Origin: Roseofilum reptotaenium CS-1145
Lineage (GTDB): Bacteria > Cyanobacteriota > Cyanobacteriia > Cyanobacteriales > Desertifilaceae
Direction: 5' to 3'
Length of the DNA: 35,997 nucleotides
Assembly: GCF_028330985.1 (NCBI RefSeq)
Contig: NZ_JAQMUE010000057.1
Span: 1-35,997, forward strand
Part shown: positions 3,542 to 9,617 of the stretch, in pieces
Position numbering within the stretch: the first letter of the stretch is position 1
How the letters are laid out: every line of letters starts with the position of its first letter
The notes under the pieces: model-generated
Told to the model about the DNA's origin: nothing
Database searches by the model: none
Seen by the model: only the letters and a program-made list of their open reading frames with translations
Made by a program: the position numbers and the translations under genes

Positions 3542-4522
<981 letters not shown>

Positions 4523-4629: not shown

Positions 4630-6468
4630 TTAAGGTCGCCATTCGGGTCCAGTGGGTGTACTGTGTAGTTGCCAGAGGCGATCGCCTCCACTATACTCTA
4701 AACGTCCTTGATTAAGCGGTTGTTGGATCAATGGGGAATCTAGGACTGGCCAGTTATCTAGAGTTTTGACTTTACCATTAATTCTTCCTAATCCTTTACC
4801 ACTTTTGGGGATATAGGCGAGGGATAATTGGGTAGAGTCTGAAGACTTTTCACTGGGTTTGGGTAAACTGTGGTAGCTTAAACGAGTTGGGTTGAACTGG
4901 GGTTGCGTTTGGCTCAGAGCTTGCGTCAGTTGGCTGAAGTTGGAATAATCGCCAGTCGAGACGATTTCCGTAATCCAAGCCGTATTCGGGCCATGGGCCG
5001 CCAGCACTTGATAGTCTGCTTCTCTACCTTTTTCTGAGACTGAAGAGCGCCATTCAATCCGTTCTCCCCACGGACGAGCGCAGAGCCAAGTGTTTTCGAT
5101 TTGCCAAATATACCAGTCTTGATACCGTTGGGGTTGGCCATAGCGGGAGGGTAAAACGAGATGGGACAAGGGAGGCACTCCAGCCGCGAGATCTTTGGAA
5201 GACAGGCGCAATTGGTAGAGAACGGTTCCTTGCTGTTGTAAATATTGATCGCCCGGAGAGCTACCCGTTGCCATGGGAGTATGATAAGTTCCGGCTAAGG
5301 AAATGACCGCATTGTTTTCGCCTTGGGGGTCTCGAACCACTAATTTATAGGTAGCATACTGGGCATTGATTGTACCTTTGACTTGGTATGAACGCCCAGG
5401 ATTAATAAGTGTGCCCAGACTGTAATCTGGGGTGATATAGAAGGTTTCCCAAAATTGATTATCTTGGTGATAGGAATAATAAACTGGATGGCTAGCTTGC
5501 AGTTCAAAGGGAAGAGTAATATTTTTCTGGGCAATGTCCTTTAAATGTTCAGGAGGACGATAGGTACTCAAGGCAGCCGGAAGTCCTACTCTCGAAGCAC
5601 TAGAGCGCATTCTTTGAGAAGTTTCTGGCCCATCTCCCCACCAAAGCCAGGCAACGGTGGCCAGTCCACTCTCATCCCAGGTTCCTCGGTCAAATCCGCG
5701 ACTTTCTGCGCCGCCTGCGGTTCCCCAACTTAACCGTAGAGCCATATTGGTGGCCAACCAGTCTAGGGCAGCTTTCGCTAAGGCTTTGCGTTCTGGGGTT
5801 TGGGCAAAATCGTAGAGATTGAGTAATCCGGCGATCGAATAGCCATAATAGATAGACGAGTGAAATTCCCCTTGGCCAATGGTGAGAAACTTATTAATTT
5901 CCGATCGCAACCACGCTTCATTGGTTGCCTCAGTTGCTGGATAAGCCACGGGCCAACCGCTACCATCCATCAAGGCTAAACCGGACACTCGCTGCATAAA
6001 CATATGGTTCTCGGTTCCCGACTCATTCCATTGTTCTACCCGCTTGGCTTCCAGTTGGCTGCGATAGTCTGCTTCTAAAGCTGGCGGTAAATTTGCGCCA
6101 AACTCAAACCAGATACGAATGTCAAAAATACTGCGGAAGTGATAGAGGTCAGTTTTTGTTTCATTAAGCCGTTGGAGGGCTTGCCCAGTCGTTTCAGCAT
6201 TATACTCTGTAGGAAGCGACAGACGGGCAAGGATGACCGGCAGAAGGTATTTATGGGGATCGCCTATATCCCGCTTTTGCCACCAAATTTCTAGGTCTTC
6301 TAAATCTTGGGACGCAATCTGCTGTCGCAGGGCTAAACTTCTGTCTTCAAACGTGGAAGTTTGAGAGAAAGCAACGGATGATTGGCGCTCAACAGAGGGA
6401 GTAGGATGAGTTCCTGTTAATAAGCTAAGGAAGACGAGGATGAGGGTGGAGAGCTTTAGAGATTTCAT
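4630..6468 (-). CDS. Secreted protein of unknown function, possibly alpha/alpha-toroid lyase-like
   Basis: I do not recognise this 612-residue protein with certainty. It starts with a clear signal sequence (MKSLKLSTLILVFLSLLTG) without a lipobox cysteine, so it is probably periplasmic or exported. The first half is helical and rich in aromatic residues, with WFEFGANLPP, ENHMFMQRVSGLALMDG and a GTAGGAESRGFDRG segment. The second half is predicted to be beta-rich. An N-terminal helical toroid followed by a beta domain, with an ENH motif, resembles polysaccharide lyases and heparinase-like enzymes; this is inference only. The upstream TTG at 6471 is in frame, but ATG 6468 is the simpler start. 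It diverges from the methyltransferase at 6548 across 79 bp. Confidence 0.85.
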   Translation of the reverse strand: MKSLKLSTLILVFLSLLTGTHPTPSVERQSSVAFSQTSTFEDRSLALRQQIASQDLEDLEIWWQKRDIGDPHKYLLPVILARLSLPTEYNAETTGQALQRLNETKTDLYHFRSIFDIRIWFEFGANLPPALEADYRSQLEAKRVEQWNESGTENHMFMQRVSGLALMDGSGWPVAYPATEATNEAWLRSEINKFLTIGQGEFHSSIYYGYSIAGLLNLYDFAQTPERKALAKAALDWLATNMALRLSWGTAGGAESRGFDRGTWDESGLATVAWLWWGDGPETSQRMRSSASRVGLPAALSTYRPPEHLKDIAQKNITLPFELQASHPVYYSYHQDNQFWETFYITPDYSLGTLINPGRSYQVKGTINAQYATYKLVVRDPQGENNAVISLAGTYHTPMATGSSPGDQYLQQQGTVLYQLRLSSKDLAAGVPPLSHLVLPSRYGQPQRYQDWYIWQIENTWLCARPWGERIEWRSSVSEKGREADYQVLAAHGPNTAWITEIVSTGDYSNFSQLTQALSQTQPQFNPTRLSYHSLPKPSEKSSDSTQLSLAYIPKSGKGLGRINGKVKTLDNWPVLDSPLIQQPLNQGRLEYSGGDRLWQLHSTPTGPEWRP

Positions 6469-6547
6469 CAATCAGAGGTTGAGGGATAGATATTTAAATG
6501 GTTTACTAAATCTGTGAGTCAATCCTTCAAGAATAGCTAAAAATTTT

Positions 6548-7270
6548 ATGACGGTAACTGACCTATATCAAGGCATGTCTGATTTCTATAATGCCTTTGT
6601 TCAGCGGAATCGAGATTATCAAGCAATTGCCACCGATCTCATTGACCTTTTCGGTGATGGGCAAACCATCTTAGATGTGGGAATTGGAACCGGCTTGCTG
6701 GTCGAGCAAATCCTTCATTTGCGACCTAACCTGCGGATAGTTGGAGTAGATACAAGTGCCTCACTACTTGAACAAGCAGAAGAATGTTTAGGGAGTCAAG
6801 TTGAGCTTTATTGTGAAGATATCAGTAATTTATCTGTTGACAAGCTCTTTGATATTGCCTATTCCCGTGGTGGAGCCTGGGCATTGGTCAATGATGGCGA
6901 TCATGTTTTGCTGGCAAGCCACATTTTGGATTTGGCTACCCTTGAGCGAAGTTTTGAACGGGTTGCAGCACACTTATGTGATGGAGGACGTTTAATTATT
7001 ATTTCATCCAATTCCAATCATACCAAGCAGGAACAACTGGATGATAATATTGTATTCGAGAGAAAGATCACCCAAAAAAGGGTTGATGATGAGCAATATC
7101 TGATCTTAGACTATCATTGCTATCATCAAAAGGAGCTTGTTGGACAACAGCAAGTAAAAATGCGATTAGTGGACTTAGAATCTGTGGAAAAGATGCTGGA
7201 AGCGGTAGGACTTATCTCTATATCCAATCATGAAAGTGAATACCACGTCTATGAAAAAAGGAGTTGTTAA
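6548..7270 (+). CDS. Class I SAM-dependent methyltransferase, first gene of a pair
   Basis: The 240-residue protein has SAM motif I LDVGIGTG (about 42-49), an acidic post-I residue in IVGVDTSASLL, and a later GGRLIIIS strand. It lacks the extra motifs of UbiE or of nucleic-acid methyltransferases. An N-terminal aromatic segment (SDFYNAF) is typical of small-molecule enzymes. The substrate cannot be read from sequence. Its TAA overlaps the ATG of the next gene by one base, so the two proteins are probably translationally coupled. That partner has a prenyl-synthase fold, suggesting an isoprenoid or prenyl diphosphate substrate, as in terpene C-methylation. No HIP1 octamer occurs in either gene. 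Confidence 0.85.
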   Translation: MTVTDLYQGMSDFYNAFVQRNRDYQAIATDLIDLFGDGQTILDVGIGTGLLVEQILHLRPNLRIVGVDTSASLLEQAEECLGSQVELYCEDISNLSVDKLFDIAYSRGGAWALVNDGDHVLLASHILDLATLERSFERVAAHLCDGGRLIIISSNSNHTKQEQLDDNIVFERKITQKRVDDEQYLILDYHCYHQKELVGQQQVKMRLVDLESVEKMLEAVGLISISNHESEYHVYEKRSC

Positions 7271-8316
7271 TGAGTAAGTATTTTGAAATGATGACTGAGA
7301 TCTCTCAGGAGACTGATGCGATCATTAAGCATTATACAGACCATTTGAATGAGGAAGTGAAACAACTTCCAATGAAGCGGTATGGTCATCCACGGTTACG
7401 GGATCTACAAATCCGAACGGGTTATGAGATTAATGGTGGGAAAAACTGGAAAGAACTTACTCCTGTTTGTGCTAGTTTTGAGATTCTCAACTGTTCAACT
7501 TATGTTATCAATTGGTTTCTTGATGAGAAGCATGGTTATGAAACGAGTGAGAGTAAACGAAACTTGGTGATTGCTGGCTTTCAACTCAGAGAGATTGCCC
7601 AACAGATTCTAGAGGATTACGGTATGACAGCGCTCATACCACTGTTGAGCAAAATCAACCACCAAATTTATTTGGGTCAGAGGATGGATATTCAGGAACT
7701 AAAAGTATCTAGAATAGGAGAATATCCAGAGTATAATGAATTTCTAGATGCCTATCAGAAACGATGTAGATTGCTCTCTGGTGTATTCTATGGCAGTTGT
7801 TTTTTAGCCGGATCGATCGTTGCAGGAGAACCCGATAATTTACTCTATGAAATGGGAGCTATTTATGGGTCTGCCACTCAGGCAGCCAATGATTTTGGTG
7901 ATTTTGCTCTTCCTGTACAGCGCCTCTCAAAATTGGAAAAACCCTATCAAGATCAATTTTCTGATTTTATTAATGGAAAGTTGACACTAGCGGTCTATTT
8001 GATGACTCAAAGATCCAATGATCAAGAATGTAATCGACTGGAAGAATTAAGATATAAAGGGATTGAGGAAAATGAATACCGCGAAATTTTATGTCTACTG
8101 GTGAATAAGGGAGTGTATGCTGATTGTTTAGCTTACCTGAAACAGGAACATAAGCGATGCAAAAAAATGCTTTACACTAAAGAAAAAACAGTTCATCGAG
8201 ATATGATCGCTTCAATCCTGGTGAGAATTACGTCGAACAAATTCCTCTCACAGCTCAGGAAAAATCTTGAGTTGTTCCAAGTGGATCATGGGGCGACATT
8301 AACCACAAGTGTCTAG
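7270..8316 (+). CDS. Polyprenyl-synthetase-like protein with altered Asp-rich motifs
   Basis: The protein (348 residues) follows the plan of trans-isoprenyl diphosphate synthases. GGK is at 56-58, a first-motif region INWFLDEK is at 80-87 where DDxxD is usual, GQRMDI is at 136-141, a LLSGVFYGSCFLAG helix follows, and a second-motif region QAANDFGD is at 204-211 where DDxxD is usual. Both metal-binding motifs are changed, so it may be a divergent prenyltransferase, a terpene-cyclase-like enzyme or a non-catalytic homologue. I chose ATG 7270 over the upstream TTG at 7264 because AAGGAG lies 6 bases upstream. It is coupled to the methyltransferase gene. The last 18 bp overlap the 3' end of the opposite TonB-like gene. 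Confidence 0.8.
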   Translation: MSKYFEMMTEISQETDAIIKHYTDHLNEEVKQLPMKRYGHPRLRDLQIRTGYEINGGKNWKELTPVCASFEILNCSTYVINWFLDEKHGYETSESKRNLVIAGFQLREIAQQILEDYGMTALIPLLSKINHQIYLGQRMDIQELKVSRIGEYPEYNEFLDAYQKRCRLLSGVFYGSCFLAGSIVAGEPDNLLYEMGAIYGSATQAANDFGDFALPVQRLSKLEKPYQDQFSDFINGKLTLAVYLMTQRSNDQECNRLEELRYKGIEENEYREILCLLVNKGVYADCLAYLKQEHKRCKKMLYTKEKTVHRDMIASILVRITSNKFLSQLRKNLELFQVDHGATLTTSV

Positions 8317-9570
8317 AGGTTCAAACGTGATTTTGAGTAGGTACAGTTGAGGATCATCGGTTAGCTCAAAAACTTTGGCTCGTACGGCTTCTAATGCAGC
8401 TTCATTCAAAATGCCATATCCTGTACTTTGAATGAGCTGGGCTTCTTGTACAATTTCCCCTTCTGGATCAACGACAACACCGATGGTGGCTCGTCCTTGC
8501 AGTTGGTTGCGACAGGCGAGAACGGGTAGGGGGACTTCAATTTCTTGTTGCTGCCACAGGGAACTATTGCTGTTATTTTTATACCGGTTGGGAAGGTTGC
8601 TAATCCAGGATTCTAGGGTAGCAGTGGCTTCTTCTTGACTGGTTCCTTCTGGATCATAGACGATCGCCTCCCGCAAGGCTTGGATTTCTGCTAACAGGGG
8701 ATCGTCAGGTTCTGGAGTTGCCTCTGATTCGGGGATTTCGTCTTCTGGAGGAAGTGCAGCCACTGGAGAAGATTGAGGTTCTGGAATTGCCTCTGGTTCG
8801 GGGATTTCGTCTTCTGGAGGAAGTGTAGCCACTGGAGAAGATTGAGGTTCTGGGGTATCCTCTGATTCAGTTTCTTGTTGGCGATATTTTTCTTGTCGGC
8901 GACGCAAATCGGCGATCGCCGCTTCTGGTATTCTACTGGGTAATACACCCGGTTCTGTTTCTTCAGGCGGTTCTTCTCCTATCGGTTCTAGAGGTTCGGG
9001 GGGAAGCGGCGTTTCAATGTCCTCTTCTGGATTATCAGCTAACCGATTAATCTCTAAATCAAGATCGCTTGGAGGCAGTATAGGCAAGGGATTTGCATCA
9101 TCGTAAACGGGCGGATTAGCAGGGGGCGGTGGGGGTAAGGTGGGTATGACTAAAGGCTCTCGATAAGGAGAATTAGAAGAAATGGGAGGGAGTTGCAAAA
9201 CGGGGGGCGGAGGTAGCTCCAGAGATGCACGGGGGGGAGGTAAGACAAAGGAAGAGGGATTTCCAGCACTGGAGCTATTAACTGAACTATTGCCAGGAGC
9301 ATTGGCAATGGGTTGTTGGGGTTGCCATGCTTCAGGATTAATGGGAGGTAGAGTTAGTTGGGAAGGGCTGTTGAGATTGGGCAGACGTTCTAATTGTTCG
9401 GGAGTCAGTTCGACTAAGTCAACTGTATTCAGAGAAGTGCGCGAGTTGCCACTTCTGGTGGGGATGTTAATCCACAATAGCCCATGAAAGGCAACGGAGG
9501 CGATCGTGGCAATCCAAAAGGGTTGGAGAACCGGTTGCCGTTGTTGGGGAAAGAGGGGAGAGTAAGTCAT
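8299..9570 (-). CDS. TonB-family energy-transduction protein with Pro-rich spacer
   Basis: TonB proteins span the cytoplasmic membrane, cross the periplasm through a Pro-rich spacer and pass energy from ExbB/ExbD to outer-membrane receptors. Here one membrane helix lies at about 18-35. A long spacer rich in Pro, Glu and Ser follows, and the C-terminus (about 345-423) is TonB-like, with QGRATIGVVVDPEGEI and STGYGILNEAALEAV. The spacer has an exact-period 69-bp (23-residue) repeat. No exbB, exbD or receptor gene is nearby. It could equally be a TonB-like protein of another envelope system. The gene starts at ATG 9570, directly below a heptamer repeat array. Confidence 0.85.
   Translation of the reverse strand: MTYSPLFPQQRQPVLQPFWIATIASVAFHGLLWINIPTRSGNSRTSLNTVDLVELTPEQLERLPNLNSPSQLTLPPINPEAWQPQQPIANAPGNSSVNSSSAGNPSSFVLPPPRASLELPPPPVLQLPPISSNSPYREPLVIPTLPPPPPANPPVYDDANPLPILPPSDLDLEINRLADNPEEDIETPLPPEPLEPIGEEPPEETEPGVLPSRIPEAAIADLRRRQEKYRQQETESEDTPEPQSSPVATLPPEDEIPEPEAIPEPQSSPVAALPPEDEIPESEATPEPDDPLLAEIQALREAIVYDPEGTSQEEATATLESWISNLPNRYKNNSNSSLWQQQEIEVPLPVLACRNQLQGRATIGVVVDPEGEIVQEAQLIQSTGYGILNEAALEAVRAKVFELTDDPQLYLLKITFEPLDTCG
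8708..8845 (-). repeat. Two 69-bp coding repeats in the TonB spacer
   Basis: Two copies, 8708-8776 and 8777-8845, encode 23-residue units with cores SSPVATLPPEDEIPEPE and SSPVAALPPEDEIPESE. A partial third copy follows. They lengthen the periplasmic spacer in frame. Confidence 0.85.
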
Positions 9571-9575
9571 GGGAA

Positions 9576-9617
9576 GGGAATGGGGAATAGGGAATGGGGA
9601 ATGGGGAATAGGGAATT
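9576..9617. repeat. Heptamer repeat, six GGGAATR/T units
   Basis: Six consecutive 7-bp units (GGGAATG or GGGAATA, last GGGAATT) begin 6 bp upstream of the TonB-like start codon. They therefore occupy the expected leader of that gene. Confidence 0.9.

What the first reader, a model, noticed from the sequence alone, without database searches (positions are those of the whole stretch)
6548..8316. Coupled methyltransferase and prenyl-synthase-like gene pair
Two genes overlap as TAATG, with a strong AAGGAG for the second. The second keeps GGK and GQxxDI features of isoprenyl synthases, but both DDxxD motifs are altered (FLDEK and NDFGD). Methyltransferase plus prenyl or terpene enzyme is the logic of methylated terpenes such as 2-methylisoborneol, but these proteins do not look like those enzymes. 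The pair may make a methylated isoprenoid not yet described, or modify a peptide or tRNA-like acceptor. No HIP1 site occurs in the 1.8 kb, weakly suggesting transfer.
Basis: partly seen in the sequence, partly recalled or inferred. Interest (0 to 1): 0.7.

Follow-up and report, generated by a model that had tools for sequence, protein, structure and literature searches.

The report
Paired methyltransferase and altered prenyl-synthase cassette
A rare two-gene cassette in a mat-forming marine cyanobacterium pairs a methyl-adding enzyme with a relative of prenyl synthases whose active site is changed, so it may decorate some other small molecule or peptide rather than make an ordinary isoprenoid.

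Summary

The canonical GGK falls on GHP in most alignments. A Lys and a His that I recall as IPP-binding are replaced. The methyltransferase fold groups with amine, peptide and indole-diketopiperazine methyltransferases more than with prenyl-diphosphate ones. I favour, modestly, modification of an acceptor other than IPP.

A lead: 7 of 8 cyanobacterial carriers also have cyclodipeptide-synthase-like genes, against 9 of 218 other relatives; these are unlinked to the pair and there are counter-examples. Activity and product are untested.

The parts
6548..7270 (+). class I SAM-dependent methyltransferase, 240 aa, first gene of the pair
7258..7263 (+). AAGGAG ribosome-binding site of the second gene, inside the end of the first
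7268..7272 (+). TAATG stop-start overlap
7270..8316 (+). isoprenyl-synthase-fold protein, 348 aa, with altered Asp motifs
7384..7404 (+). GHPRLRD (residues 39-45), the position of the canonical GGKRLRP in most alignments; Lys replaced by Pro41, Arg44 kept
   Evidence: one profile alignment disagrees
7510..7560 (+). region of the first Asp-rich motif, residues 81-97: either N81-W-F-L-D85, or D85-E86 with an acidic residue 91 and K96-R97
   Evidence: unresolved
7888..7902 (+). N207-D-F-G-D211, position of the second Asp-rich motif; invariant in 8 of 8 aligned rows
6469..8301 (.). extent of the two-gene stretch absent at the empty site of sister genome G005 (flanks there 42 bp apart)

Best explanation
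A two-gene tailoring cassette. Shown: the genes overlap, were adjacent in every copy found, are present or absent as a unit, and are conserved; the second protein is predicted to have the trans-isoprenyl-diphosphate-synthase fold and the first an amine/indole-type methyltransferase fold. Inferred: the synthase-like protein no longer condenses IPP. It binds a prenyl diphosphate through its remaining acidic/Asn metal positions (the 81-91 region, N207, D208, D211) and lysines K224 and K237, and transfers the prenyl group to another acceptor. The methyltransferase methylates the same acceptor or the prenylated product. The acceptor is made elsewhere in the genome, since the pair stands alone. A cyclodipeptide is the best present candidate.
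For: Pair order kept in 9 of 9 genomes. In 386 sampled cyanobacteria each family, at the thresholds used, occurs only in the same 2 Roseofilum genomes. Empty site in G005 and another location in G003. dN/dS 0.04-0.24 in 13 of 14 comparisons. A Roseofilum clade in both trees. Fold. GGK Lys to Pro or Leu, EllH His to Asn, KT to LS, with the second motif and two lysines kept. Methyltransferase fold group TylM1, CalS10, SgMT, PsmD, CypM, SeMT, CgnL, with SeMT (9icz) third of 49 by sequence profile (7.5e-8). Paralogues of the methyltransferase in Okeania (L027) and Symploca (L029) sit beside a class III aminotransferase gene. Isoprenoid-fold enzymes that prenylate tryptophan are described in PMC13290415 and PMC10853753 (passages).
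Against: If the first motif is D85-E86 with acidic residue 91 and K96-R97, as several alignments have it, the allylic site and part of the IPP site are only conservatively changed and chain elongation is not excluded. No precursor-peptide gene fits beside the pair in the window, and no flanking gene is shared with L009, L010 or L012. Two further methyltransferase paralogue loci (L030, L031) show no aminotransferase gene among the ORFs listed (judged by eye, not scanned). Asn in place of Asp could mean weak or no activity. The AF2 alignment had 8 closely related rows, pLDDT is 57 on average over residues 81-90, and no coordinates were available to inspect the pocket.
Confidence: 0.38

Rival explanations
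1. One reading: the methyltransferase methylates IPP or a prenyl diphosphate and the synthase-like protein elongates or cyclises the methylated unit, giving a methylated isoprenoid.
For: Precedents in PMC10881772 (passages): 2-MIB, the IPP methyltransferase of S. monomycini, lon23, BezA. The fold is that of a synthase. In several alignments D85-E86, acidic 91 and K96-R97 replace DD, D and RR conservatively.
Against: GGK Lys and EllH His replaced. Methyltransferase nearest to amine and indole methyltransferases; an FPP methyltransferase only at 9e-4 and no chain named GPP methyltransferase among the 49 listed. No terpene-synthase family match.
Confidence: 0.24
2. The synthase-like protein is not a catalyst but a partner: a regulatory or scaffold subunit of the methyltransferase, or of a canonical synthase as in heteromeric prenyl synthases.
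For: Both Asp motifs changed. Overlapping genes. Heterodimeric synthase chains appear among the fold neighbours (3aqb, 9kp1).
Against: Second-motif residues, K224, K237 and neighbouring stretches are invariant in 8 of 8 rows, as expected of an active site.
Confidence: 0.18
3. A class I terpene cyclase that evolved from a synthase, with the Asn-Asp second motif working like an NSE motif, acting with the methyltransferase.
For: Changed IPP site with a kept N-D-x-x-D. The likeness to NSE motifs is recalled.
Against: No terpene-synthase Pfam match; nearest folds are prenyl diphosphate synthases.
Confidence: 0.08
4. Chance neighbours without a joint function.
For: Flanks differ between genera.
Against: Adjacent in 9 of 9 genomes, at more than one site, with an empty site.
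Confidence: 0.03

Closest known systems
trans-isoprenyl diphosphate synthases (PF00348; decaprenyl/octaprenyl/GGPP synthases)
   Different: GGK Lys (most alignments), EllH His and KT replaced; first motif not DDxxD under any alignment; RRG absent or replaced by K96-R97
trans-IDS-like tryptophan prenyltransferases ComQ, PalQ, ChrPC, Ord1
   Different: ComQ keeps FARM and lacks SARM (PMC10853753, passages); here SARM is mostly kept and FARM is altered; no precursor gene beside the pair; a methyltransferase partner
Nocardioazine noz2 locus (NozPT plus NozMT, CDPS at another locus)
   Same: A prenyltransferase and a methyltransferase together at one locus, cyclodipeptide synthase elsewhere (PMC10156859, passages); most carriers here have CDPS-like genes elsewhere
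   Different: NozPT is phytoene-synthase-like, this one polyprenyl-synthetase-like; no isomerase gene; the link to CDPS here is only statistical
Indole C3-methyltransferases of diketopiperazines (SgMT, SeMT) and PsmD
2-MIB pair and IPP/GPP methyltransferases with prenyl or terpene enzymes
   Same: Logic of a SAM methyltransferase next to an isoprenoid enzyme
   Different: No match to those families in the searches run

Membership tests
canonical trans-isoprenyl diphosphate synthase | isoprenoid synthase fold | tested here: met
canonical trans-isoprenyl diphosphate synthase | first Asp-rich motif DDxxD or DDxxxxD | tested here: not met
   N-W-F-L-D, or D-E-x4-D/E, by alignment; neither holds DD
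canonical trans-isoprenyl diphosphate synthase | second Asp-rich motif DDxxD | tested here: inconclusive
   N-D-x-x-D, invariant in 8 of 8 rows
canonical trans-isoprenyl diphosphate synthase | GGK-R, EllH, RRG (recalled as IPP and allylic diphosphate binding) | tested here: inconclusive
   His to Asn; Lys to Pro or Leu in most alignments; Arg44 kept; RRG absent or K96-R97
canonical trans-isoprenyl diphosphate synthase | condensation of IPP with an allylic diphosphate | not testable with these tools
   needs enzyme assay
trans-IDS-like tryptophan prenyltransferases (ComQ, PalQ) | FARM kept, SARM changed | tested here: inconclusive
   SARM is N-D-x-x-D; place of FARM unresolved
trans-IDS-like tryptophan prenyltransferases (ComQ, PalQ) | precursor peptide gene beside the enzyme | tested here: not met
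   76 bases to the divergent left gene, overlap with the convergent right gene in the window
trans-IDS-like tryptophan prenyltransferases (ComQ, PalQ) | prenylation of tryptophan | not testable with these tools
   needs enzyme assay
2-MIB type GPP methyltransferase and synthase | membership in the GPP methyltransferase and terpene synthase families | tested here: not met
   second protein: no terpene-synthase Pfam match at 0.1; first: no GPP methyltransferase among the 25 NCBIfam rows shown of 29 or the 49 PDB rows
amine/indole class I methyltransferases (TylM1, SgMT group) | Rossmann core with C-terminal antiparallel sheet | tested here: met
amine/indole class I methyltransferases (TylM1, SgMT group) | methylation of an amine or indole carbon | not testable with these tools
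   needs enzyme assay
tailoring of a CDPS-made cyclodipeptide | a cyclodipeptide synthase in the same genome | tested here: inconclusive
   CDPS-like in 7 of 8 cyanobacterial carriers, not in G002; none found in G445 with PF16715; G005 has one without the pair

The most novel reading that the evidence does not exclude
The pair is a tailoring module for a tRNA-derived cyclodipeptide: a polyprenyl-synthetase-type enzyme with a rebuilt active site prenylates, and its partner methylates, a diketopiperazine made by an unlinked, divergent cyanobacterial cyclodipeptide synthase. This would be a third isoprenoid-fold route, beside phytoene-synthase-like and ComQ-like enzymes, to prenylated and methylated peptides, in mat-forming cyanobacteria that include Roseofilum, the genus of black band disease.
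Probability: 0.15. Interest if true: 0.75.

Novelty: new variant of a known kind. Interest (0 to 1): 0.5.

Why it matters
If active, this is a branch of the isoprenoid-synthase superfamily for which I found no description, with a compact portable two-gene module that may add a prenyl and a methyl group. It gives a directly testable pathway in genomes whose cyclodipeptide-synthase-like genes have no product that I could find. If the synthase-like protein proves inactive, the pair becomes a case of a synthase fold recruited as partner of a methyltransferase.

Tried and rejected
Fusion in L012: a 609-aa ORF (5203-7032) looked like a methyltransferase-synthase fusion, but its N-terminal part is the wrong frame; the methyltransferase reads in another frame up to 5965, so there is no fusion.

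Shared neighbours: no gene is shared between the flanks of the window and those of L009, L010 and L012 (the L008 part of that output was cut). A TauD gene follows the pair in both Okeania (Pfam run on the L009 copy only; the L008 copy is judged by its like sequence) and an EctB gene in one.

Phage or plasmid carriage: no match in plasmids; 138 pattern matches but no relative in viral contigs. Defence system: the methyltransferase matches part of mad2 (3.3e-12), which I take as the generic methyltransferase domain, and two weak Cmr5 matches of the other protein are above 0.01. HIP1 as evidence of transfer: probability 0.12 of none, so not used.

Cyclodipeptide synthase link: with Pfam's model alone the contrast was 6 of 8 carriers against 1 of 371 other cyanobacteria. 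A more sensitive profile built from the genes themselves lowered it to 7 of 8 against 9 of 218, found one in G005, which has no pair, and the genes are of several divergent types; by lineage p is 1.8e-4 without correction for genome size or habitat. G881, G926 and G967 were counted as non-carriers without a direct search for the pair. The 8 carriers include G002, whose copy is broken. PMC9967302 reports a CDPS cluster in all nine of its Roseofilum genomes, whereas G002 gave none here. Distant relatives of the synthase-like protein: none at 1e-10 among 377 genomes of the phylum of L012 beyond itself.

Literature: no paper describing this pair appeared in the ten searches run, of which some aimed at it; only open-licence papers are held.

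Full report
What is there. The window lies on contig C57 of genome G000. Its nearest named relatives are Roseofilum: the locus of R. acuticapitatum BLCC-M154 (L007) matches that of G004, and that of R. halophilum BLCC-M91 (L011) matches that of G002. The genus is therefore inferred, not printed. Two plus-strand genes, 6548-7270 and 7270-8316, overlap as TAATG between a divergent left gene (4630-6471) and a convergent right gene (8299-9570, TonB_C). AAGGAG at 7258 precedes the second start. A short stop-start overlap is also seen in L008 and L010, and a gap of 35 bases in L012.

The active site. I aligned the family with canonical synthases of the same genomes by MAFFT (one of its canonical rows, L048, is in a wrong reading frame), by profile and pairwise (6 rows, 3 gap settings, one of which gave no usable alignment). 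Agreed in the alignments that cover them: NDFGD (207-211) sits on the second DDxxD, the lysine-rich GKxT stretch is kept, and the His of EllH is Asn74. GGKRLRP falls on GHPRLRD, in the ispA-type profile and in 12 of 12 usable pairwise alignments, but on INGGK in one profile alignment with a low threshold. KT is LS. The first motif is unresolved. The gap-free reading gives N81-W-F-L-D85. The gapped reading gives D85-E86, an acidic residue at 91 (E or D in 8 of 8 rows) and K96-R97 at the spacing of DDxxxxD and RR in ispA-type synthases. The model has a helix to residue 84 but is poorly defined at 81-90 (mean pLDDT 57). That the canonical residues bind IPP and the allylic diphosphate is recalled knowledge of farnesyl diphosphate synthases, apart from the roles of FARM and SARM stated in PMC13290415 (passages). 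The change of Lys and His is the main ground for thinking that IPP is not the acceptor; it is moderate evidence, and activity is not shown.

A unit that moves. The synthase-like gene was found in 5 of 99 relatives, 2 of 386 genomes of the phylum, 2 of 61 of the Okeania family, 1 of 57 and 1 of 377 around L012, and at 7 loci in genome contigs, of 12 stretches that matched a pattern. These overlap and make 9 genomes: 5 Roseofilum, 2 Okeania, 1 Symploca and one high-GC bin. The methyltransferase lies directly upstream in all 9, though R. halophilum has a deletion running from the middle of one gene into the other, and the Okeania SIO2B3 copy has a stop at codon 3 of the second gene. In 386 cyanobacteria the methyltransferase family at 1e-40 is found in the same 2 genomes only; more distant paralogues occur in Okeania and Symploca, and no synthase-like gene is listed beside those I looked at (L027, L029, L030, L031). 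G005 has the flanking genes 42 bp apart and no pair, and in G003 the pair lies where the window's flanks do not match. Canonical synthases are 95 and 93 % identical between G000 and G004 and 73 and 71 % between G000 and Okeania, whereas the synthase-like protein is 85 and 80 %. This compressed range would fit exchange between families, but the Roseofilum copies form one clade in both trees (88/97 and 91/99), so repeated transfer is not shown. dN/dS is 0.04-0.24 in 13 of 14 comparisons; one was saturated.

What might be the acceptor. No peptide gene fits beside the pair in the window, and no flanking gene is shared with L009, L010 or L012. A passage of PMC9967302 says that each of nine Roseofilum metagenome-assembled genomes has a cyclodipeptide-synthase cluster. 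Testing this, PF16715 was over its cut-off in 6 of 10 genomes examined (G000, G003, G004, G442, G443, G444), below it in G001, and not found in G002, G005 and G445; it was present in 3 of 373 cyanobacteria, two of them G000 and G004. The genes are divergent: six scanned again score 23 to 40 bits, and identities of the other seven aligned rows to the first are 19-73 %. A profile from them found 14 of 224 relatives. Counting carriers, 7 of 8 cyanobacterial carriers have one against 9 of 218 others; Fisher p 1.6e-8 uncorrected, 1.8e-4 by lineage. G935 was taken as the Symploca genome because contig numbers and positions agree. The genes are not beside the pair, their types differ between carriers, and G005, G002 and G445 break the pattern. 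The nocardioazine pathway shows that a prenyltransferase and a methyltransferase can sit apart from their cyclodipeptide synthase (PMC10156859, passages). I treat this as a lead with probability 0.15.

Verdict. The pair is a rare, conserved unit that has changed place. Acceptor modification is favoured (0.38) over methylated isoprenoid (0.24) and a non-catalytic partner (0.18). No paper on this pair appeared in the searches listed under Tried and rejected.

Noticed in passing
L091:2989-4274, L093:7578-9364, L094:2633-4419, L096:5705-7228, L098:4809-6321: Divergent cyclodipeptide-synthase-like genes sit beside a conserved gene of about 160 aa in five genomes; Pfam names the L091 copy TerB-like.
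   Followed up: partly
L027 and L029 (Okeania SIO2B3, Symploca SIO2C1): Paralogues of the methyltransferase, three in tandem in Okeania, lie with an AlaDH/PNT-like gene (Okeania) and a class III aminotransferase gene; the Symploca aminotransferase is judged by its like sequence. A possible amino-acid-derived pathway.
   Followed up: partly
L053:1138-3180 (G445): A 681-aa open frame holds a divergent polyprenyl synthetase domain (matched to residue 258) followed by about 400 aa without a Pfam match; it recalls prenyltransferase-cyclase fusions.
   Followed up: partly
L049:1321-3611 (own genome, G000:C83): Another divergent polyprenyl synthetase gene, with MDDCADRDD and LDDIES motifs, lies beside a gene with an eCIS core domain.
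   Followed up: partly
L047:1309-3204 (Okeania SIO1I7): A polyprenyl synthetase frame has about 300 aa before the domain, rich in Asn and Gly.
   Followed up: no
window 9575-9616: A GGGAAT-type repeat of about 42 bases recurs many times in Roseofilum genomes.
   Followed up: no
L011:5727-6789 (R. halophilum BLCC-M91): A natural deletion runs from the middle of the methyltransferase into the synthase-like gene, out of frame; G002, the matching genome, is also the one Roseofilum of six without a CDPS-like hit.
   Followed up: partly
window 3542-4501: A HetR gene (Peptidase_S48 6e-74) lies two genes to the left of the pair.
   Followed up: no
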